A stretch of DNA of 28,247 nt from Parvularia atlantis (Eukaryota > Opisthokonta > Rotosphaerida): positions 5,762-34,008 of the forward strand of contig CALSCO010000456.1 of the NCBI GenBank assembly GCA_943704415.1. Direction: 5' to 3'. Position 1 is the first letter of the stretch; every line of letters starts with the position of its first letter. This document shows, one piece after another, positions 2,147 through 25,814 of this stretch. Made by a program: the position numbers and the translations under genes. Below the pieces are notes generated by a model, which had not been told where the DNA came from, ran no database searches, and saw only the letters and a list, made by a program, of their open reading frames with translations.

Positions 2147-3135
2147 ATGGACGAGCGTCACCTTTGCTTCCTGGGTGACGCCGACGACGCCGACGCCGCG
2201 ACGCAGCAGCCGCTCGTGCCGCGCACGTTCGAGCCGCGCAGGTCGGACGTGTACGTGGCGTCGTACATGAAGGTGCGGCGGATCTCCCCATGCGGGCGAC
2301 TGACCGCTTCCCCTCGAGACAGTCCGGCACGACCTGGGTGCTCTACCTCGTGCGCCTCCTCGTGCGCCTGCGCGCGGGCGACGGCGACGCCTTCGCGCGC
2401 CTGACCGATGTGTGCCCGTGGATCGAGGCCGTGGACGCGCGCGCGCCGACCGCTGACCGCGGCGCCGCGCTCAACGCACTCCCGGCGCCGCGCGTGATCA
2501 AGACCCACGCCCTCCCGCGGCACCTCCCGCCCGTCGGCCGCGTCGTCTGCGTCGTGCGCGACCCGTGCGACGTCGCCGTATCGCTGTACGCGCACGCCAT
2601 CGGCTTTCAGGCGTTCGACGACACGTTTGAGCGCTTCCTCGAGCTCATGGGCCGCGGCGGGTGCACCTACTTTGGCAACTTTGCGCCGTGGCCGGCGCAC
2701 GTGCGCGCGTGGCTGGACGAGGCCGCGCGCGACCCCGCGCAGGGTACGACGCGTGCGGATCGGCGAGGCTGTGCTGATCGGCCCGCGCCAGTGCTCGTCG
2801 TGCGGTACGAGGACCTGCTGGCCGACGCCGCGGGCACGATCGCACGGCTGGCTGCGTTCCTCGGCATCGACGCGTCGGTGGACGAGCTCGAGCACGTGCG
2901 CGAGCTGGCGACGTTCGAGCGCATGCGTGCGCAGGCCGAGCGCTTCAACTACGTGTGGCAGGACGCCGAGAGCCAGGAGCGGTTCAGCTTCTTCCGTGTG
3001 GGGCGTGCGGGCACGTGGCGCGAGCACGCGTCGCGCGAGGCGTGGGCGGCGTTCCGGGCGGCCGTGGCGGCTGATCTGCGGGCGGACGGGCGAGACAGCG
3101 CGGCGCACGTGCTGCTCTTTGGCAGTCTGGGCTGA
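2147..3135 (+). CDS. Cytosolic-type sulfotransferase (PAPS-dependent)
   Basis: Transfers sulfate from PAPS to a hydroxyl or amine acceptor; the substrate cannot be told from the sequence. Exons 2147-2272, 2323-2743 and 2792-3135 give 296 aa, the usual size for this family. The 5' PSB loop appears as SGTTW (residues 43-47), right after the first intron, which removes an in-frame spacer at the expected YPKSGTTW position. The likely catalytic His104 is in IKTHALP. The 3'-phosphate-binding segment is VVRDPCDVAVSLY (about 119-131). The C-terminal cofactor loop reads FRVGRAGTW (about 250-258), matching the family's RKGxxGDW motif. There is no signal peptide or membrane segment, so it is probably cytosolic. 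Its 3' end lies only 296 bp before the next start codon on the same strand. Confidence 0.9.
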
Positions 3136-3267: not shown

Positions 3268-3431
3268 GTGCGTCTGGCCGCGCCCCCGTCGCTTGCTGCT
3301 TTTCTTCTCTCCCCCTCCCCTCTGCGCCTTTCGGCCGCGTGCTGACAACCCCCCCGGCCCCTGCCCGCCCGCTCGCAGTCTCTCTCTGCCTTTTCTCCCC
3401 CCCAACAACCACTACCACAACCGCAACCACC

Positions 3432-6095
3432 ATGGTGCTCGGCAAGGAACAGCCCACGACGCTCGAGGAGCAGCTCGCGATGCAGCGCAGCAGCGCCGTG
3501 TCCGAGGGCCAGAAGGTCTCGCTCCAGGAGCAGCTGGCGTACACGCGCGCCGCGGCCGCCCAGGATGCGTCGTCGTCGGCCTACTCGGACCTGCAGGCGC
3601 AGCAGACGGCCAAGGAGGTGACGATGTCGATGCAGCAGGGCGAGCTCCCGGGCAACCCGGTCATTGCCAACATCCTCGACCGCGGCGAGGCCGTGACGGT
3701 GCGTATGGACGCGCGCGCTGCCGCTGCCGTTGCGGCACTTACGCTCGGGGCGCGCCAGGCCGCCAAGATGGCCGACCCCACGCTGTCGACTGACGCGCGC
3801 CAGGCCGCTGACGACCTGCGCAACCTGCTCTCGCTCACGCGCGAGATGCTCGTGACCAAGAACCAAGACGAGGCGCTGCAGCGCGTCGTGCACCACAGCA
3901 AGGAGGCCGGCGTGGCCTCGGCGTGTGCGTGATGCCGTGGGCTGACGCGCGCCCACATATGCTCACCGGGGCCGCGCTTGCCCGCAGCCGCCGCCGCCAG
4001 CACCGGCCCGACCGCCCAGGTCGGCCGCGTGCGCGAGAAGACGGGCGAGCTCGCAATGACGACCTACAACCTGGTCAAGCTGATGGCGCGCTCGGGCGAC
4101 TTCCGCAAGTGCGTCTGCGCGTGCGCGGACCATCGGCTGACGCGCGCGTCGTCGCCAGGCTCGTCATGGACCTGGTCAACATTGTCTCGGACTTCACCAA
4201 GAACCGCTTCGAGGGTGCGCAGCAGACGACGCGCCAGCAGGAGACGCCCGAGGACGCCGGCCGCGAGCTTGGCGAGCGCACGCGCGCCCAGGGCAAGGAG
4301 GTCCGCGAGGTGCGCGTGCTCGGCCTCCCGCTCGCCCGTGCGCGTGTTTGTCACACGCGGCACGCGCTCGCAGGCGCTAAAGGACGACCGCGTCCAGGAC
4401 CGCCTGATCGACCGCTTCCACGACTGGCTCAAGAAGATCAACCGGCGCGACGACTTCCGCCAGGTGGCGTTTCGTGCCCGCTGCGCCGCGCGTGCTGAGC
4501 CGCCGTCCGCCGGCCAGGGCATCCGCGAGCTCGTCGACTCGCTCGACGACTTTGCGCGCTTCGGCGGCGACACGAACGAGGAGCTGCGCAACAACCCGGA
4601 CCTGCTCCAGGCGCGCCTGCACTCTGCCCGGGTGCGCTCGCTCGCCCTCCGTGCCAGCTGCAGTGCGGCTCACGCGTGCTGCACGCCAGGCCCGCGCCGA
4701 GGCCAAGAAGGTCGTCGAGCGCTTCGCGTCGGGCTACTCGATTGACAACATCCTCCAGTCGATGAAGAACATCCTTGAGGACGCCCAACGCGACGAGGAG
4801 CTGCGCGACTTCCTCTACAGCCTGCGCGAGTTTGTGATGCGCTCCATCAACGAGCCCGAGGTGCGTTGGCTGTGCCGCGCGCGCCGCGCCCTGACGCGCC
4901 GTGCCGCGCACAGTTTGTCGAGAGCGACAGCTGGCGCGAGGAGGCCCGCAACAAGAAGAACCGCAGCAAGGAGGTCTTTGATCGCATCCGCCCGCACATC
5001 GACCGCTTCGTGGACGAGGTGCGCGCGCGAGCGTCTCCGTTTGTGCCGTGCTCCGCTCACGGCCCGCCGCAGTCGCGCGCGCTCATGGACGCGTTCAAGG
5101 GCGACCCGCAGCTAATGGCGCTGTCGCAGTCGACGCGGGTGCGTGAGTGCACGGCCGTTTGCATGCTGCGTCTTACGCCGCTCCCGTCCGCGCTGCAGAG
5201 CTTTGTGCAGCACCTGTTCCTGGACGAGAACGGCCGGCCCAAGCTCAAGCCCGGCGTGCTGCTGGACCTGCGCAGCATCCTCGGCCCGCTGCTGCAGGAG
5301 GAGCTCAAGTACATCTACGTGCCGCGGCTGGCGTCGGACGACGAGTCGATCACGTGGGTGCTCGACAACGTCATGCTCAAGGGCGAGGACGTCCTGCCCG
5401 ACAAGATCGTGGTCGAGAACTACAACAAGATGGTCATGAGCCCGACCAAGGTGGACGAGCAGGCCATGGGCTCGACTCTGCGCATCTACATGTTCGTTCG
5501 TTCGGGCGCGTGCTGGCGCGGCGGTACGGTCTGACGGCGGCGCGCAGCTCGGGCATCCGCGCGCACCTGTACGACGTGCGCATGGCGTACGCGCGCAAGA
5601 CCTTCCCGAAGATGGAGGACGTGATCACGTTCGACGCGCACCTCGCGGGTGACGGCCTGAGCATGGAGATCATCCTGTCGACGACGCCGCGCGTGCGTTC
5701 TTTTGACCGCTGCCGTTCGCGCGGACGAGCTGAGCGTCGGTGGCCGCAGGTCGACCACCTCTTCCGCATCGTCTCGATCAAGACCGACGTGGACGAGTTC
5801 ACGCTCAACAACATCCACGGCGTCGACCACAGCAAGTGCGTCGTCGCATCGCTGTGCCTTGCGCGGCGCTCACTCGCGCCCGCAGCATGCTGTACACGCT
5901 CATGAAGCCCATCATCCAGAACCAGGTTCGGCGCAACATGGAGTCGTCGATCACCGACGCGATTCGCACGCGCCTGCTGGTGCGTCTGCGGCCGGGCCGC
6001 CTGCGCCGCCGTGCTCACACGCTTGCACGCGCACACGTCTGCAGGACGTCGACCAGCTCCTGCTCGCGTACAAGGACCGCATCAGCCTGACGTGA
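3432..6095 (+). CDS. HAM1-like (DUF5923/DUF4449-type) protein
   Basis: Thirteen exons: 3432-3924, 3988-4108, 4159-4309, 4374-4463, 4518-4631, 4690-4860, 4914-5018, 5073-5138, 5199-5491, 5548-5692, 5750-5835, 5886-5979 and 6045-6095. Together they give 659 aa with all phases consistent. The N-terminus has two related segments (TTLEEQLAMQR and SLQEQLAYTR). The middle is helical and charged. From about residue 438 the protein alternates strands and helices (LLDLRSILGPLL, YIYVPRLAS, DKIVVENYNKM, LYTLMKPIIQNQVRRNME). This resembles the fungal HAM1-like C-terminal family as I remember it, whose fold is thought to be BPI/TULIP-like and lipid-binding. The family name is from memory and the molecular role is unknown. 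No signal peptide or membrane segment. The strong TATA and Kozak-type context suggests high expression. Confidence 0.6.
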
Positions 6096-6203: not shown

Positions 6204-7624
6204 TCACGCGCCACGGTGCTGCTGCAGCCTTTGCAGCCGGTCGAGCGCGACGCGGGAAAAGTACAGGAACGCGGGCACAAACTCCTGCGGCGGGGTGCGG
6301 TGAGATGCGCGCACCAACAGCAGCACCCGCGCGCACCTGCGCCGCGTCGGAGATTTGCTCGGCCGGCAGCTCGTAGCCGCGCACGACGTCGGCCGTCGGC
6401 CGGATGTTGACCTGCAGCGACAGCGGGCAGAAGCCGATGAGCGTGCTCAGGTCGTCGCCGGCGCCCCTGCGTGCAGCCGCGCGCGCGGTTAGAGTTCGCC
6501 GGTGGCGGTGCGACGCGGGCCGGGTGAGGCGCACCAGTCGAGCGCGGTGCCGCCAAACGTCTCGCCGCGCTCCGACGCCTGGCGCACGCTGTAGCGCGTG
6601 CCGTTGCGCCGCTCGATCAGCCGCGCCATCTCGCCGCCGATCTCGCGGTACAGCGCGGCCTCCTCCACGGGCTCGGTCGTCCACTGGCTCGGGTAGAGGA
6701 TCTCCTGGCCGTACGCGCGCAGGTCGATCAGGCCGGCGACGTTGATCAGGTCCTGCGGGCGTTCGCCGTGCGCGTGAATGTCAGCGTGCGCGCGCGAGTG
6801 CCTCGCGGCGGCACGCACGTAGGCGATGAAGTAGGCCATCGCGCTCGTCTCCTTCTCGGACCAGGGGCGCCTGCCGCCAAACGCGTCCGACGCCTCGTCG
6901 CGCTCGTTGTCGACGATCCAGTGATCGTCTGCGCACGAGTCGTCAGCAACGTCGGTCAGCGCACGGGCGCCCTCTCGGCGCACCCCAGTTGCGGTTGAGC
7001 GCGACGCCGACCGGCTCGTCGCGCGCGTCCGCGGTCGTGCCGTTGGTCAGCGCGCGGTTCTTGACCCAGGCGCGGTCGGCCGTCCACGTGAAGTCGTACC
7101 CGTCCGGGTTGGCCATCGGCACAAACACAAACTCGGCGCGATCGAGCAGGTCGAGCACGTCCGGGTCGCGCGAGCTGACGAGGTGGTAGACGAGGTACAT
7201 GGTGGTCGTCGTCGTAGCCCACTCGCGTCCGCTCTGCAGGCTGTGTGCGCCCGGCGTCAGCGCGCGGCGGGCGGACGCCCGCCGTTCACGCCTCTGCACA
7301 AAGATCTTGGGCTTGTACGGGTTGTCGGTCGAGGAGCTGACGCGCGCGCAAATCACGTCGCGGCCCTCGGCGGCGCGGGTGATGCGCGGGTAGAAGACGA
7401 TGTTTTTGTTGTACGCGGCCGCGAGCTGCGCGCGGTGTGGCGTGGCGAAGCGTCGTCAGCGCGATGTCGTGCTCGCGGACAGCCGCGCGCACCTCCTTGA
7501 ACCACACGACAACGTCTGTGTAGTTGTGGTACGCGGCGAACCACTCGCGCGCGTCCGGCGGCTCGGCGCGCGCCGGCGCGGCCGACAGCAGTGCGGTCAG
7601 GGCCAACAGAGCGAGCGCGCGCAT
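6204..7624 (-). CDS. Secreted M14 carboxypeptidase-like protein, probably catalytically inactive
   Basis: Seven exons: 7624-7493, 7425-7292, 7240-6984, 6928-6819, 6752-6535, 6466-6337, 6284-6204 (353 aa). It starts with a clear signal peptide (MRALALLALTALLSAAPARA) and follows the M14A fold throughout: KPKIFVQ, GREW, MYLVYHLV, ANPDGYDFTWT, ALNRNW, WSEKET, LIDLRAYGQEILYP, QASERG, IRPTADVVRGYELP. The substrate-side LNRNW motif is kept, but active-site residues differ. Zn ligand His69 aligns with Ser92 (SLQSGREW) if intron 2 is a GC-AG intron. Zn ligand His196 is Arg223 (LIDLRAYG). Tyr248 is Arg (VRQAS). The general base Glu270 aligns with Asn304 (QVNIRPT). The Arg and Asn changes lie inside unambiguous exons. 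Likely a secreted pseudo-peptidase or binding protein. Its stop codon faces that of the HAM1-like gene 108 bp away. Confidence 0.85.
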
Positions 7625-13504: not shown

Positions 13505-14138
13505 TCACCATACACGCACGGCGTCAACGAGCGCTGTGATCTCCCGAAACGCGGCCGCGGCGTCGGCGTCGTGTTGTGCGGCGTCGGGTGCGTCGGCGGC
13601 GGTGGGCCCGCCCGCCAGCGCCAGGCCGAGCAGAAGCGGGCGCACGTTGCCCTCGCCCTGCGCGGACGCGACGCGTTCGACGATCTCGCGTGCGTACACC
13701 ATCAGCGTCTCGTCGTCGCGCCGCCCGAGCAGGCAGTGGATCGAGTAGGTGCCCGTGCCGCGGCCGTGCTCGTCGACGTTGCGCGACGCGCGGATCTGCG
13801 CATCGCGCACGCGCACACGCTCGCGGTTGGTCACCGGCACGCGGCTCAACGCGCAGGGCACGCGCAGGGCACGCGCACAGCACGCGCACGCGCACGGCAC
13901 GGCACGGCACGGCACGGCACGGCACGCACCAGGCTGCCGACCTTGCCTAGCTGCGACACGATCAGCAGAATATGGTCCGCGTACGCCTGCGCGAGCAGCT
14001 GCGCCCGTGTCAGCCATCGCACGCGGGCGGACGTGGCGTGCATGTCGCGTGCCCGCCGCTCGCACGCACCTCCGTCCGCACGCCGCGCACGACCGTGACG
14101 TGCTGACGGGTTGTGATCGGGAAGGGTGACGTGTCCAT
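13505..14138 (-). CDS. PSMG3: Proteasome assembly chaperone 3 (PSMG3/PAC3)
   Basis: Small chaperone that pairs with PAC4 to help build the 20S proteasome alpha ring. Exons 14138-14070, 13998-13930 and 13795-13505 give 142 aa (human protein 122 aa). It shows the whole family outline: PFPITTRQHVTVVRGVRTE at the start, then ADHILLIVSQLGKVGSLV (human SHILVLVTQFGKMGTLV), YSIHCLLGRRDDETLMVYAR, LLLGLALAGG, and the final ITALVDAVRVW matching the human end VIRVCQVW. The extra length is an Ala/Asp-rich insert before the last helix. Intron 2 (13929-13796) carries a GGCAC repeat. Start codons of this gene and the GPCR are 74 bp apart, head to head. Confidence 0.88.
13896..13925. repeat. (GGCAC)6 tandem repeat in PSMG3 intron 2
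   Basis: Six perfect copies of GGCAC lie next to the 5' splice site of PSMG3 intron 2, flanked by degenerate GCGCACGC copies. This explains the larger size of that intron. Confidence 0.9.
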
Positions 14139-14212
14139 GCTGGGAAGTGTGCGCCCGGAGATACGCCGCTTTCCCCGCGCCGGCGTCGCACCCGCGTTTC
14201 GCGTTTGGGCGC
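14139..14212. promoter_or_regulatory. 74-bp bidirectional promoter, PSMG3 / GPR157-like
   Basis: Only 74 bp separate two divergent start codons, so both 5' UTRs and the core promoters must fit here or overlap the genes. No TATA box is visible. Confidence 0.5.
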
Positions 14213-15365
14213 ATGACAGCCGACGACGGCACCGGCTCGGGCTACGGCCCCGCGGGCGACGCGGCCGTGGCGGCGCTCGGGACGCTCACGTGCCTGCTGT
14301 CGATGCTGGGCTGCGTGGTGATCGTGCACTCGTACGCGCGCTGGAAGGAGCTGCGGACGGTCTCGCGCCTGCTGCTCGTGTTCCTGTCGTGCGCCGACTT
14401 TGCCGTGGCACTGGGCAACGCCGTGGGCCTGCTCTCGCGCGCGGGGCCGGGCACGCTCTGTACCGCGCAGAGCTTTGTCACGACGTACGCCTCCATGGTC
14501 TCGTTCTTCTGGACCGTGTACGTCGCGTGGTACCTGCTCGTGTGCATCCCCGAGCCCGCGAGCGGACCGCCCCTGCCGAGCGTCGTGGCGCGGTACCTGC
14601 TCGTGTTCCACGTGACGGCGTGGTTTGTGCCGCTCGTGGTCGTCATCGTCGCGGCGGTGTTTGGCGTGCTGGGCGCGTCGGCCAACGACACGTGGTGCTG
14701 GGTGAGCGACACCGTCGGCCAGGTCTTCTTCTGGTGCGCGCGCGCAAACGCACCGCACCGCACGCGCACGCTCATGCGCGCGCGGGCACACATACGCACA
14801 CACGCACACACCACAGGCGCATGTTCACCGGCAAGATGTGGGAGTTCATGGCCTACATCGCCACGCCGTTCCTGTACTTCCTCGTCAAGTGGCGCATCGA
14901 CGCCAACGTCGTGCGGGCGACGGTGGGGCTGCACCCGGCGCAGCGCACGGTCATCTCGAGCGCTGACCGCAAGATGACGCTCATCCCCGTCGTGTTCATC
15001 TTCGTGCGCATGTGGGGCAGCATCCGCTTCATCGTCGACTCGACGCCGAGCGGCTACGACGCGCTCTGGCTGACGATCCTCCAGGCACGTCGGGCTGCCG
15101 CGTGTGCTGTCGCGTGACCGCCCGCGGTGCGACGCGCCAGGCCGTTGGCGACTCGTCCCAGGGCTTTGCCAACTTCCTCATGTTTTGCGTCCTCACGCGC
15201 CGCGTCCGCAACAAGTACCTGCGGCTGCTGCGCCTACGCGCGGACGAAGACGAGGCGCCGCTCCTACCGCCGCCTACGCCCGCGCCCGCACCCGAGAGCG
15301 CCGGTACGATCGAGTACTACGAGCGCGCGGGCGGGGACGTGCTGCGCCCGGTCACCATGCGGTAG
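14213..15365 (+). CDS. GPR157-like seven-transmembrane receptor
   Basis: Plasma- or ciliary-membrane G-protein-coupled receptor; human GPR157 is 335 aa. Exons 14213-14733, 14817-15084 and 15141-15365 give 337 aa. Seven hydrophobic segments are visible: AALGTLTCLLSMLGCVVIV, LLLVFLSCADFAVALGNA, SMVSFFWTVYVAWYLLVC, YLLVFHVTAWFVPLVVVIV, FMAYIATPFLYFLV, LIPVVFIFVRMWGSIRFIV and GFANFLMFCVLTRR. FTGKMWEFMAY, ADRKMTLIP and SQGFANFLMF match GPR157 (LTGKLWEMLAY, ADKKLVLIP, FQGGANCIMF) rather than generic cAMP-receptor-like proteins. A Cys before TM3 (TLCTAQSF) and one in the second outer loop (TWCWVSD) would form the usual disulfide. Intron 2 (15085-15140) begins with GC. The cytosolic tail is short and Pro-rich. 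Confidence 0.85.
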
Positions 15366-21018: not shown

Positions 21019-23789
21019 CGCGCAGAGCCTCGGGGCGGGCATGGCGCCGTCGCACGCGGCCGGGCACTACGCGCAGCTCGCGCCGCCCGTTCACAACGGC
21101 TACGACGGCGGGGCCGAATGGCACGCGGGTCTGATGCCGACGCCGCCGGCCCGCGCCGGGCTGCCGCGCAGGTGCGTGGGGTCTGTCAGGCGCGCGTGCG
21201 GGTGCGGTGGCCGCTGACGGCGCGAGGGGTGCGCGCAGTGCGTCGTTCGCAAACGACAGCAGCGCGTACGGCATGTACAACACCTACGCCTCACCGCCGC
21301 CGCCGCACCACGCGCCGCCGCCGCAGCGGCAGCACGGCATGCACTACGTGGGCCAGTATGCGCACCCGCTCTCGCCGCCGCAGGGCGTGCCGTTCTTCCA
21401 CATGGGCGTGGTGCCGCCGTCGGCGCGCATGCACCCGCACCCGCACCCGCATCTGCACGGCGTCCAGCAGCACCCGCAGCAGCAGCTGATGGTGTCGGCG
21501 CCGCTGTACGGCGGCCTGCCACGCTCGCACAGCGCGACGTCAAGGTGTGCGCGCGCTCGCTGGCGGGAGAATGCGCACTGACAACACGGGCGCGCAGCTC
21601 CCCGCGTGAGTACCCATACGCGCGCACGCCGTCGTCGCAGGACCGCATGGCGCGCACCAACGAGATCGGCCTGCCGCGCACCGACTCGAACCTGTCCGGG
21701 ATGTCGGAGGAGGGCGACGGCGACGACCCCGTGAGCTTCGACTGGCTCGAGGAGTTCAAGGACAAGTCGCGCAACAAGCCCGTTGTCAAGGCGTGCATCA
21801 ACTGCAAGCGCGCGCACCTCGCGTGCGACACCGAGCGCCCGTGCCGCCGGTGCGTCCGTCACACGTTTGTGTGTGTGTGTGTGTGTATGTGTATGCGTGG
21901 CTCACGCGCACCGCCCTGCGCGCCAGCTGCCTCGCGTCGGGCAAGCAAGACACATGTATCGACGTCGAGCACAAAAAGCGCGGCCGCCCGAAGCTGCTCA
22001 AGAACATGCCCGGCGGGAGTGTCGCGGCGTCGTCCGGTGCATTCGTGTGCGCGTGCGCGCTTGCGTGCGCTGATCGCGCCGCGCTCATGCAGAGCCGCAG
22101 AGCACGTCCCAGGCGACGCCGTCCGGCCTGCTCGGCATGGACACGCTGCAGCTGACGCGCGAAGACGCGGCGCGCCGGTCCGCCGCCCGCTCGGCGTCGC
22201 AAGGCTCGAGCCACAGCCACGGCCACGGCCACAGTCAAGGCCACGGCCAAGGCCTGCTGGCCGCGACGAGCACGCGGGCGGACCGGAGAAACATCTCGCC
22301 CAACCTCGTCGTGCCGGCTGACCTCAAGTGTATGTCGGAGAACACGCTCGACGGCATCTGCCTGTGCGTGCTCCCCTCTGCTCCCCTGGGTCGTGGTCTG
22401 GTGACGCGTCGCGCGAATGCACAGGACGGCGACGGCCGAGTGCGAGCTCATTCTCGGCTACGCTGCGCGCGACTTTGTGGGGCGCTCGATCTACGAGTTT
22501 GTGCACCAGGACGACATTGCGCTGCTGGCACAGCACCACGCGCGCACGCTTGGCACGGACGGCAACCAGACCGTGCGCGTGCAGTTCCGGGTGCGACCAC
22601 TGCGTTCACTTGCGCGTCATGCGCTGACCCGGGCCGCGCAGATGAAGCACGCCGCCGGCCACTACACCCCAGTCGACATCAGCATGAGCTCGCAGAAGAA
22701 CCAGCAGACGGGGCGCGCCGACACGCTGCAGTTTTCGTTCCGGCCGCTCACGATCACGCCGCAGCAAGTGGCGGTGAGCGAGGGCACAGCAGGTTGCACT
22801 TGGCCGCGACCGCGTTGCTGACCGCGGCGGGCGCAGGCGCACCACGAGCGCACCCAGCACCTGGCGTCAATGAGGTGAGCGGCCGCGCACGGCCGTCTGC
22901 GCCGCGGCGCCGGCTGATACGCTCGGTGCGCAGCAGCAAGTCGTTTGAGTCGCTCACGGCCGCGGCCGCCGAGGCGGCGCAGTACGAGCTCAGCGCGAGC
23001 GCATCGGGCTCGTCGGCGGCCGCGACGGGCCCGTCGGAGGACGGCGCGAGCAGCGGCGGCGGCGACGTGCTTGGCGGGGACGCGAGTGGGGCCAGCGGCG
23101 TGTCGATCGTCATCACGCCGGCCGACCGCAGCGCGCGGCCGAGCCTGAGCTCGATTGGCGGGAGTGCGTCCGACCTGAACGTGCACCGTCTGGTGGCGCT
23201 GCTGGACAACCAGTCGCACCCGGACCTGGGGCTGCTGTCGTCGACGCAGGGGCCGGGCGAGTGGTCCAACCCGACGACGCCGGCGTCGCTTGAGACGTAC
23301 ATGATCGACCTGTCGGGGTCGTCGCGGCGGACGAGCGACCTGGCGACGCTGATGGACGCGCGCAACGTGCAGCAGCTGCAAGAGACGAACAGCCGGCGCA
23401 CGTCCGAGCTCATGCCCATGCCGTCTGTCGCGGCCGCTGCCGAGCTGATGATGCTCTACCAGCAGCAGCAACAGCAGCAGCAACAGCAGCAGCAAGCGCA
23501 GGGCTCGGCCGCGCAGGACTACCTCGCCCGCCGCGGCAGCGACCGCTCGCTGGCCGAGCTCGTGGCCCTCGCGACGATGGCCGGCGACGTCTCCGCGGCC
23601 GACTACGCCGTGTACAAGCGCGCGCGCATGGGCTCGCTCGAGGGCCTGGCGCCGCCGCCGCCGCGGCAGCCAGCACCGCAGCAGCCGCCGGCGCGGCTGG
23701 TGCCGCAGGTGCCGGCGCCGGACGGCGACGCGGCCGCCGCGTTCGACAGCGGCCAGCTGCAGTTTGTGATCAACCACTTCCAGCAGCAA

Positions 23790-23830
<41 letters not shown>

Positions 23831-23954
23831 ACAGCAATCGGCGTTCTTCGGCTACGGCGGCGTGCCCACGCCGGCATTTGGCACGACTGCCACCGGCGCC
23901 ACGCCCACGGCCTCGCCCGCGCCCGGCGCCGCGTCCGGCTCGCCCTTTCCTTGA
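20918..23954 (+). CDS. Zn2Cys6-PAS transcription factor B (ERT1/RDS2-like), polyQ-rich
   Basis: Nine exons: 20918-21171, 21239-21544, 21598-21849, 21927-22036, 22093-22363, 22425-22590, 22642-22773, 22837-22874, 22934-23954 (849 aa). A polyQ and Pro/His-rich N-terminus precedes a zinc cluster, KACINCKRAHLACD..RPCRRCLASGKQDTC (Cys 253, 256, 263, 269, 272, 281), completed only after splicing. It is followed by an AT-hook-like KKRGRPKLLKN. A PAS domain spans about residues 378-485 (ENTLDGICLTATAECELILGY, FVGRSIYEFVHQDDIALL). This is the ERT1/RDS2/AcuK layout and gives a nuclear DNA-binding regulator. The large last exon encodes a low-complexity Ser/Ala/Gln region with two more polyQ runs, probably an activation domain. 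The cysteine spacing is identical to factor A, 3.3 kb away, so the two look like divergent relatives. Confidence 0.87.
20957..21016 (+). repeat. CAG repeat coding 20 glutamines in TF B
   Basis: One CAA is followed by 19 pure CAG codons, the purest and longest coding triplet repeat in the window. It is likely length-variable between strains. Confidence 0.95.
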
Positions 23955-24049: not shown

Positions 24050-25814
24050 ATGGACAGCGTCGTGCTCGGCCTGCGGCCCGTCGAGTGGGTCGGCCTACTC
24101 GGCCTCGTGGCCGTGGTCGCATACTTTGTCGTGCCGCGCCCGAAGCGCGTGCCCAAGGAGATCACGCCGGGCAAGTACACGGACGACGCACAGGTTGACA
24201 CGCGCGCGCACACGACCCAGCCGCGCTCAACCCGCGTGCGCGCAGAACAAGAGCCGCGCCTTCTACGACGTCGCGATCGTCGGCGCGGGCCCGTCGGGCT
24301 CGACCGCGGCCTACTACCTGTGCAAGGGCGGCGCCAAGACGCTCCTGCTCGAGAAGGCCAAGTTCCCGCGCGACAAGCACTGCGGCGACGCCGTGTGCAA
24401 GATCGCGATCGAGATCCTCCACGACATGGGCGTGTACGACGAGCTCATCCGCGACAACAAGGCGCACGTGGCCGACTCGGGTGGCCTCGTCTCGCCCAGC
24501 GGCTACAGCTTCATCGGCGCGAGCCACAAGGTCTTTTTTATTTTCTGGCGAACCGCCTTCGCCCTCTGCTCAAACGTTGCGCCCCGCCAGGTCCTCGGCA
24601 AGATCCCGGCCGCGCTCGCCTGCAAGCGCATCCTGCTGGACGAGGCCATCGCCCGCGCGGCGCAGAAGCAGGGCGCGGACCTGAAGGAGGAGCACAGCGT
24701 GACCGACGCCAAGTTTGACAGCGCCTCGGGCCTGTGGACGGTGACCTGCGAAGGTCCGCCCGCCGCGCATCTCCCCCCTCGTGCGCGCGCGCTCAGTGCA
24801 CTGACGCTCGCGCGCGCGCGCGCGCGCACCAGGCGGCCACCAGTACCAGGCGCGCGTGCTCGTCTGCGCCGACGGCGCGCCCTCGCGCCTCGCCACGCAG
24901 CTCGGCTACATCCACGAGGCGCCGCAGGGCGTGTGCTCGCGCGCGTACGTCAAGGGCAACCGGCACCAGTTCCCCGCCGACGGCGTCGTGTTCTACAACC
25001 AGGGCATGCTGCCGGGCTACTACGCGCTGTTCCGGCACCCGAATGACGAGCTCAACTACTGTGTCTACCTCATTCCCGGTGCGGTACACGAGCCCCAGCG
25101 TGCGCGTGGCGCTGACGTGCGCGTACGCAGGCAACCCGAAGGTGCTCAACGACGACCTCAAGAAGTGGCACGACTACCTCATGGTCAACGACCGCTGGAT
25201 CGTCGACTCGCTCGGCGAGGGCTTCGACCCGGAGAACGACATCGAGCGCATGAAGGCCGGCCCGCTGCGCCTGGGCGGGATCAACAACAGCTACGACCGC
25301 CACTTGCTGATCGTGGGCGACGCCGCGGGCATGATCGACCCGATGACGGGTGAGGGCATCCACCACGCGATGGACTCAGGCCGGATCGCGGCCAACCACC
25401 TCCTGCGCTGCATCAAGGCCGGCAACTACAGCAAGGAGGTCATGTCGATCTACCAGGACACGTGGAAGGAGCTCTTCGGCGACGACTTTGCCTGGTGCGC
25501 GAGGCTGCGGCGCCGCTCGCGCGCGTGGCTGCTCACCCACCGCGCTACCGCACAGGTCCATGGCCATCTGCCAGCTGCTCTTCCGCTACCCGATCCTGCT
25601 CGACGCCGCAACCAAGGCCGTCGCGCGCAAGGGCGATGAGTTCCTGGCGCGCTGGGCCGACATCATGACCGGCCGCGTGCCCAAGGTCCACCTGCTCCGG
25701 CCCGAGTTTGTCATCGTCGTCGGCTTTGAGCTGATCGTGCTGCTGATCCAGCGCGGTCTCGGCCTCGAGAAGAAGCCCAACGCGGCCCCGCCGAGCAAGA
25801 AGAAGTCGGAGTGA
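24050..25814 (+). CDS. Geranylgeranyl-reductase-type FAD oxidoreductase, membrane-anchored
   Basis: Six exons: 24050-24193, 24246-24530, 24591-24753, 24833-25078, 25131-25494, 25556-25814 (486 aa). A hydrophobic N-terminal anchor (WVGLLGLVAVVAYFVV) precedes the FAD-binding Rossmann motif VAIVGAGPSGSTAAYYL (about residues 57-73), LLLEKAKFPRDKHCGD, and the second dinucleotide motif LLIVGDAAGMIDPMTGEG with GIHHAMDSGR. These are marks of the geranylgeranyl reductase family, which saturates isoprenoid double bonds in chlorophyll, quinone and archaeal lipid synthesis. A C-terminal hydrophobic segment (FVIVVGFELIVLLI) is followed by a tail ending KKSE, a KKxx ER-retrieval signal. The likely site is the ER membrane acting on a polyprenyl substrate, but the substrate is inference. 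The start was chosen at the first in-frame ATG. Confidence 0.85.

What the first reader, a model, noticed from the sequence alone, without database searches (positions are those of the whole stretch)
6204..7624. A secreted M14 carboxypeptidase that has lost its zinc and catalytic residues
The fold motifs of M14A carboxypeptidases run from end to end, yet four key positions differ from the bovine carboxypeptidase A pattern. His196 is Arg223 (LIDLRAYG). Glu270 is Asn304 (QVNIRPT). Tyr248 is Arg (VRQAS). His69 is Ser92 (SLQSGREW) under the best splice model. The frame is intact, the signal peptide is good and LNRNW is retained, so it looks like a maintained pseudoenzyme rather than a decaying gene. 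A secreted non-catalytic peptidase could act as a C-terminus-binding or inhibitor-like protein.
Basis: partly seen in the sequence, partly recalled or inferred. Interest (0 to 1): 0.7.

Follow-up and report, generated by a model that had tools for sequence, protein, structure and literature searches.

The report
Secreted carboxypeptidase look-alike without zinc site
This gene encodes a secreted protein with the shape of a protein-trimming enzyme but without the parts that hold zinc and cut, so it probably binds something rather than digesting it.

Summary
On the minus strand, 7624-6204 encodes a 353-residue, apparently secreted M14 carboxypeptidase-like protein in 7 modelled exons (Pfam Peptidase_M14, E 6.4e-52). 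Tyr248 is lost too, but aligns with Glu275, not with the Arg of VRQAS. Arg71, Glu72, Asn144 and Arg145 are kept. Ser69 survives every splice model tried. No relative examined shares the losses at 69, 196 or 270: 7 of 7 modelled M14 relatives in the same genome and 80 of 80 prokaryotic relatives keep His69, Glu72 and His196. No second copy was found. The branch is long, but frame and base composition are not those of long neutral drift. M14 pseudopeptidases are known (fungal Ecm14, AEBP1), and one basidiomycete group also has His196Arg with changes at 127 and 270. This is a more complete loss in an unnamed lineage: a new variant of a known kind. The function (C-terminus binding or partner regulation) is inferred, not shown.

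The parts
7493..7624 (-). exon 1: start codon, signal peptide (residues 1-20, by eye), start of the M14 domain
   Evidence: remodelled
7426..7492 (-). intron 1, 67 nt, GT-AG
   Evidence: chosen by 8 of 10 single-relative queries
7292..7425 (-). exon 2 (ends KIFVQ)
7241..7291 (-). intron 2, 51 nt, GC-AG; rival GT-AG intron 7299-7234 also leaves Ser at position 69
   Evidence: 8 of 10 single-relative queries
6984..7240 (-). exon 3: SLQSGREW (His69 to Ser92, Glu72 kept as Glu95), AWVKNR (Arg127 to Val148), LNRNW (Asn144, Arg145 kept)
6929..6983 (-). intron 3, 55 nt, GT-AG
   Evidence: 10 of 10 single-relative queries
6819..6928 (-). exon 4
6753..6818 (-). intron 4, 66 nt, GT-AG
   Evidence: 7 of 10 single-relative queries; the other 3 put the donor at 6824
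6535..6752 (-). exon 5: LIDLRAYGQ (His196 to Arg223), RGETFGG (Tyr248 to Glu275), Leu282 at position 255
6467..6534 (-). intron 5, 68 nt, GT-AG
   Evidence: 5 of 10 single-relative queries; the others end earlier, read through, or (C44) place another intron
6337..6466 (-). exon 6: LQVNIRPT (Glu270 to Asn304)
6285..6336 (-). intron 6, 52 nt, GT-AG
   Evidence: 4 of 10 single-relative queries; the others end earlier
6204..6284 (-). exon 7 and stop codon: C-terminal end of the domain and short tail

Best explanation
A secreted M14 carboxypeptidase pseudoenzyme, probably derived from the same stock as four active carboxypeptidases of its own genome. It has lost two of three zinc ligands (His69 to Ser, His196 to Arg), the base Glu270 (Asn), the carbonyl-polarising Arg127 (Val) and Tyr248 (Glu). 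Its M14 domain starts right after the signal peptide, which leaves no room for a prodomain. Shown: the residues, the retained family signature, the intact modelled frame, and the exceptional status among the relatives examined. Inferred: no zinc is bound, and Arg196 pairs with the retained Glu72 where zinc would sit and keeps the domain folded without metal. Inferred and less certain: the protein works outside the cell by binding, most likely C-terminal carboxylates through Asn144/Arg145/Arg71, or by pairing with an active paralogue or wall protein, without cutting.
For: Pfam M14 177 bits over residues 40-329. Best solved relatives are insect CPA 1jqg, CPB and CPO, E 5e-29 to 1e-24. Active-site table over 7 own-genome relatives and 3 PDB chains. 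80 of 80 prokaryotic relatives keep His69, Arg71, Glu72, Arg127, Asn144, Arg145 and His196, and 77 of 77 with a letter keep Glu270. The protein keeps 4 of 9 active-site columns but 26 of 35 other columns that are at least 90% one letter in 88 relatives. GC2 0.459, GC3 0.946 and no stop, against means of 0.639, 0.85 and 4.1 stops in 100 neutral simulations from the nearest paralogue's coding sequence to 34% identity. Basidiomycete Ecm14-like proteins with Arg127Tyr, His196Arg and Glu270His are reported as likely inactive (PMC7706225, section 5 read).
Against: Long branch (2.01, 1.84), the longest terminal branch in both trees; no well-supported set holds the protein, and its fork with the four paralogues has only 81/76. 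The contrast of active-site against other columns is not significant alone (Fisher p 0.12, 0.14). No transcript, no dN/dS, no close orthologue, no structure model. Retained Asn144/Arg145 may be structural, since LNRNW is a conserved motif. Loss of Arg127 and Tyr248 weakens peptide binding in the classical cleft.
Confidence: 0.8

Rival explanations
1. A pseudogene that lost function recently and is still intact by chance.
For: Long branch; no orthologue to test; in the simulation from its own coding sequence, drift of 0.05 substitutions per site leaves GC3 at 0.933 and no stop in 28% of 100 runs.
Against: Most of the divergence looks as if it was accumulated under coding constraint: GC2 0.459, GC3 0.946, fourfold-site GC 0.972 against intron GC 0.766. 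All six modelled introns have usable ends and there is no frameshift. Several catalytic changes with the frame intact are unlikely in a short neutral spell (inference).
Confidence: 0.12
2. A sequencing, assembly or splicing artefact hides an active enzyme.
For: The GC-AG intron beside position 69 rests on homology alone; no reads or RNA available.
Against: Positions 127, 196, 248 and 270 lie inside modelled exons and carry ordinary sense codons. Ser at 69 remains under every splice model tried, GT-only included. The DNA search found no second copy; its only other match is 70% identity to paralogue C445 over part of the query.
Confidence: 0.03
3. A true orthologue of fungal Ecm14.
For: Ecm14 is the known fungal M14 pseudopeptidase of the secretory pathway (PMC7706225).
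Against: Ecm14 is defined by N144D and E270K, keeps the zinc ligands and has a prodomain. Here Asn144 and Arg145 are kept, 270 is Asn, 69 and 196 are changed, and the domain starts right after the signal peptide. In the tree it falls beside four active paralogues of its own genome, with moderate support 81/76.
Confidence: 0.04

Closest known systems
Basidiomycete Ecm14-like group with Arg127Tyr, His196Arg, Glu270His (PMC7706225, section 5 read)
   Same: Same three positions lost, with the identical His196Arg; Asn144 conserved; presumed inactive.
   Different: Here 127 is Val and 270 is Asn, and His69 and Tyr248 are lost too. The nearest rows are active paralogues of the same genome.
Ecm14 of ascomycetes
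   Same: Secreted M14 A/B-type pseudopeptidase.
   Different: Ecm14 keeps H69, E72, H196 and R127, changes N144D, R145H and E270K, and has a prodomain.
AEBP1/ACLP, CPXM2 and CPD domain III
   Same: M14 pseudopeptidases with positions 196 and 270 changed (table in PMC11266112, seen as a passage).
   Different: They carry transthyretin and, in part, discoidin domains; here a single M14 domain. All five M14 pseudopeptidases listed in that table keep His69, which is lost here.
Active-site-intact carboxypeptidases of the same genome (C365, C559, C139a, C445)
   Same: Same family; 31.5-36.2% identical; nearest in the tree.
   Different: All four keep the zinc ligands and Glu270. C445 has an N-terminal region of roughly 120 residues before the domain, not recognised as an M14 propeptide by Pfam.

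Membership tests
Pfam Peptidase_M14 (PF00246) | Profile match over the curated cut-off | tested here: met
   177.4 bits against 21.6; profile positions 3-283 of 286
Active M14 metallocarboxypeptidase | Zinc ligands H69, E72, H196 | tested here: not met
   S92, E95, R223
Active M14 metallocarboxypeptidase | General base E270 and Arg127 | tested here: not met
   N304, V148
Active M14 metallocarboxypeptidase | Carboxylate clamp N144, R145 (with R71) | tested here: met
   N171, R172, R94; Tyr248 is lost
M14A (A/B) subfamily | Groups with A/B carboxypeptidases | tested here: inconclusive
   In one fork with own-genome enzymes and PDB CPA/CPB/CPO rows, support 80/93, long branch; no M14B row was in the tree
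Ecm14 (strict) | N144D and E270K | tested here: not met
   Asn and Asn; definition read
Ecm14 (strict) | N-terminal prodomain | tested here: not met
   The M14 domain starts right after the signal peptide in the gene model. A scan with C445's N-terminal region was at shuffle level (42 against 40-52), but that query also gave only 48-66 in the six other paralogues, against shuffles of 41-54, so it is a weak test
Basidiomycete Ecm14-like group | R127Y, H196R, E270H | tested here: not met
   Only H196R is identical; 127 is Val and 270 is Asn
Secreted protein | Cleavable signal peptide | tested here: inconclusive
   Judged by eye from the sequence; three N-glycosylation sequons at residues 34, 155, 261; no predictor run

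The most novel reading that the evidence does not exclude
An M14 domain that has become metal-free in a constructive way: Arg196 and Glu72 form a salt bridge in the zinc pocket, the carboxylate clamp Asn144/Arg145/Arg71 is kept, and the protein reads C-termini of extracellular or wall peptides without cutting them, perhaps competing with the host's own active paralogues. The same His196Arg in a basidiomycete group would make this a repeated route of zinc loss.
Probability: 0.25. Interest if true: 0.6.

Novelty: new variant of a known kind. Interest (0 to 1): 0.42.

Why it matters
M14 pseudopeptidases have poorly known functions. A case that has emptied the zinc site itself, in a genome that also carries active-site-intact paralogues, offers a clean test of whether such proteins act as peptide readers or partners. 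If confirmed, a recurrent His196Arg would suggest a common structural way of losing the metal. PMC7706225 (data of June 2019, section 5 read) says that the CPA and Ecm14-group sequences from basal fungi all have CPA-like active sites, so a case from an early-branching lineage would add to that picture, if the organism is such a fungus, which is not settled.

Tried and rejected
Splice alternatives: GT-only donors (7299-7234) and the two models chosen with C445 and C290 as queries were examined; all keep Ser at 69. No HxxE occurs in any of the three minus-strand frames from 7303 to about 7210.

A second copy or allele for dN/dS was sought: the DNA search listed only the gene itself and a 70% match to C445. 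The protein search listed only loci already known, C445, C139, C365 and C559. Viral contigs gave 1 distant locus, not analysed. Prokaryotic relatives (92 confirmed, best 80 kept) served only as a baseline for residue conservation. They were found with two short conserved patterns, one of which demands Arg or Val at 127, so relatives that lack those patterns would be missed.

Intron positions as support for the GC-AG intron: none of the six is identical in column and phase to an intron of the modelled paralogues, so no support either way.

A prodomain scan with C445's N-terminal region was uninformative, because it also failed to stand out in the six other paralogues, whose scores were 48-66. 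Whether they have prodomains is not known, so lack of one is not claimed as special to this gene.

Rows left out of counts: C44 and C290 were left out of the core set, because they form a separate subfamily and C290's model is partial. C44 has Arg, not Tyr, at 248, and C290 has no letter there or at 270. C139b and C204 have HGDE and HGNE motifs, look M14B-like (recalled label) and gave no good model. Only 14 of the 80 prokaryotic loci went into the tree.

Organism: Zn_clus and HAM1_N in the same window suggest a fungus or close kin. EF-1A carries a stretch that I recall as the opisthokont insertion. Two chitin synthase families and two flagellar families did not match, but three of those four searches had no ringing control. 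The exon-wise search also missed the window's own Zn_clus, so these absences are weak. Caulochytrium was considered from memory of its GC content and not confirmed. The organism is left unnamed.

Structure prediction was not asked for: the tool admits only proteins read letter for letter from DNA, and this one is spliced.

Full report
Observation. The minus strand from 7624 to 6204 reads as a seven-exon gene for 353 residues, with short introns of 51-68 nt. Five are GT-AG. A splice-aware aligner written for the purpose was run with each of ten relatives as the only query. Eight of ten chose the GC-AG intron, C445 and C290 chose others, and a profile of the ten chose it too (276.9, against 268.8 with GT donors only). 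In every one of these models the residue three before the retained Glu72 is Ser. Pfam Peptidase_M14 matches residues 40-329 with E 6.4e-52. The nearest solved chains are 1jqg (named carboxypeptidase A; its insect source is recalled), CPB and CPO.

Active site. In a MAFFT alignment with seven modelled M14 proteins of the same genome and three PDB chains, the residues at CPA positions are: 69 Ser, 71 Arg, 72 Glu, 127 Val, 144 Asn, 145 Arg, 196 Arg, 197 Ala, 198 Tyr, 248 Glu, 255 Leu, 270 Asn. The numbers were assigned by motif on the pig CPB chain; the numbering is recalled. Tyr248 is lost, but its place is taken by Glu275, not by the Arg of VRQAS. Arg127Val was missed. All 7 own-genome relatives keep His69, Glu72 and His196, and 6 of 6 with a letter keep Glu270; at 248, 5 of 6 with a letter have Tyr and C44 has Arg. 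Of 80 prokaryotic relatives (the best 80 of 92 found), 80 of 80 keep His69, Arg71, Glu72, Arg127, Asn144, Arg145 and His196, 77 of 77 with a letter keep Glu270, and 74 of 78 with a letter have Tyr at 248. They were found by short conserved patterns, one of which requires Arg or Val at 127, so the sample leans towards ordinary members.

Is it maintained? Against 88 relatives (80 prokaryotic, 5 own-genome, 3 PDB; C44 and C290 left out), the protein keeps 4 of 9 active-site columns and 26 of 35 other columns that are at least 90% one letter. A smaller set gave 4 of 10 and 33 of 47. Fisher's test gives p 0.12 and 0.14, so the contrast alone is not significant. In the same kind of count the seven paralogues keep all of their active-site columns (C445, C139a, C365, C290) or all but one (C417, C44, C559); for other columns C417 keeps 43 of 61, about the same share as this protein. 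Base composition is more telling. GC at codon positions 1, 2, 3 is 0.643, 0.459, 0.946, close to the paralogues, while its introns are 0.766 (299 bases). A hundred neutral simulations from the nearest paralogue's coding sequence to about 34% identity gave on average GC2 0.639, GC3 0.85 and 4.1 stops. Under that simple model most of the divergence was not neutral. Against this, the terminal branch is the longest in both trees (2.01; 1.84), so constraint is relaxed or altered, and a loss of function within the last roughly 0.05 substitutions per site cannot be excluded.

Origin. The tree of 25 rows places it beside four paralogues of its own genome with intact active sites, C365, C559, C139a and C445, with moderate support 81/76; no strongly supported set holds it. 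C365 is the nearest at 36%. The DNA search listed no second copy. The M14 domain begins right after the signal peptide. A scan for a prodomain with C445's N-terminal region was uninformative, since it did not stand out in the other paralogues either. Three sequons lie at residues 34, 155 and 261, and there are only two cysteines, at 70 and 297.

Mechanism. Shown: family signature, loss of two zinc ligands and of catalytic residues, retained Arg71, Glu72, Asn144 and Arg145. Inferred: no zinc is bound, and Arg196 pairs with Glu72. Inferred with less weight: a secreted binder, either of C-termini through the retained clamp or of an active paralogue or wall protein. Roles of Arg127, Asn144, Arg145, His196 and Glu270 are as described in PMC7706225 (section 5 read); those of Arg71 and Tyr248 are recalled.

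Comparison. Ecm14 keeps its zinc ligands and is defined by N144D and E270K (PMC7706225, passages and section 5; table in PMC11266112, passages). About half of a basidiomycete sister group has Arg127Tyr, His196Arg and Glu270His, which is the nearest published pattern that I saw. In the table of PMC11266112 all five listed M14 pseudopeptidases (AEBP1, CPXM1, CPXM2, CPD-III, Ecm14) keep His69. I saw no case without His69 in the parts read. Literature searches on this question were made; of the papers that they listed only PMC7706225 and PMC11266112 were opened, and those in part. That is a narrow search.

Verdict. A real and well-supported pseudoenzyme: a new variant of a known kind, of moderate interest.

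Noticed in passing
window, about 3400-6095 (+); matched piece in ORF 4779-5534: Neighbouring gene with a HAM1-like N-terminal domain (PF19343); the gene's outer limits are a guess from ORFs.
   Followed up: no
window 14117-14977 (+): Seven-helix receptor of the slime-mould cAMP receptor type (Dicty_CAR PF05462, E 2e-9).
   Followed up: no
window, about 21700-23954 (+): Zn(2)Cys(6) cluster stretch (PF00172, E 1e-5) followed by a PAS-like stretch (recalled, not tested) and Gln runs.
   Followed up: no
window, about 24051-25814 (+): FAD-dependent protein that looks like a geranylgeranyl reductase (FAD_binding_3; the specific name is recalled).
   Followed up: no
window 2179-3135 (+): Sulfotransferase (PF00685, E 4e-32) in one open frame.
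   Followed up: no
G000 whole genome: No match to chitin synthase families PF03142 and PF01644, although Zn_clus matches occur (4) and EF-1A carries a stretch recalled as the opisthokont insertion. Lineage unclear, perhaps a fungus or a fungus-related protist; the absences are weak evidence.
   Followed up: partly
L010/L018 (C44) and L009 (C290): A second M14 subfamily of the same genome with HAREIVTP/HARELVTP motifs, well separated in the trees (100/100).
   Followed up: partly
window gene and the modelled M14 relatives: Fourfold-site GC of 0.92-0.99 in the eight M14 genes against 0.766 in the window gene's introns: strong codon bias or GC-biased conversion.
   Followed up: partly
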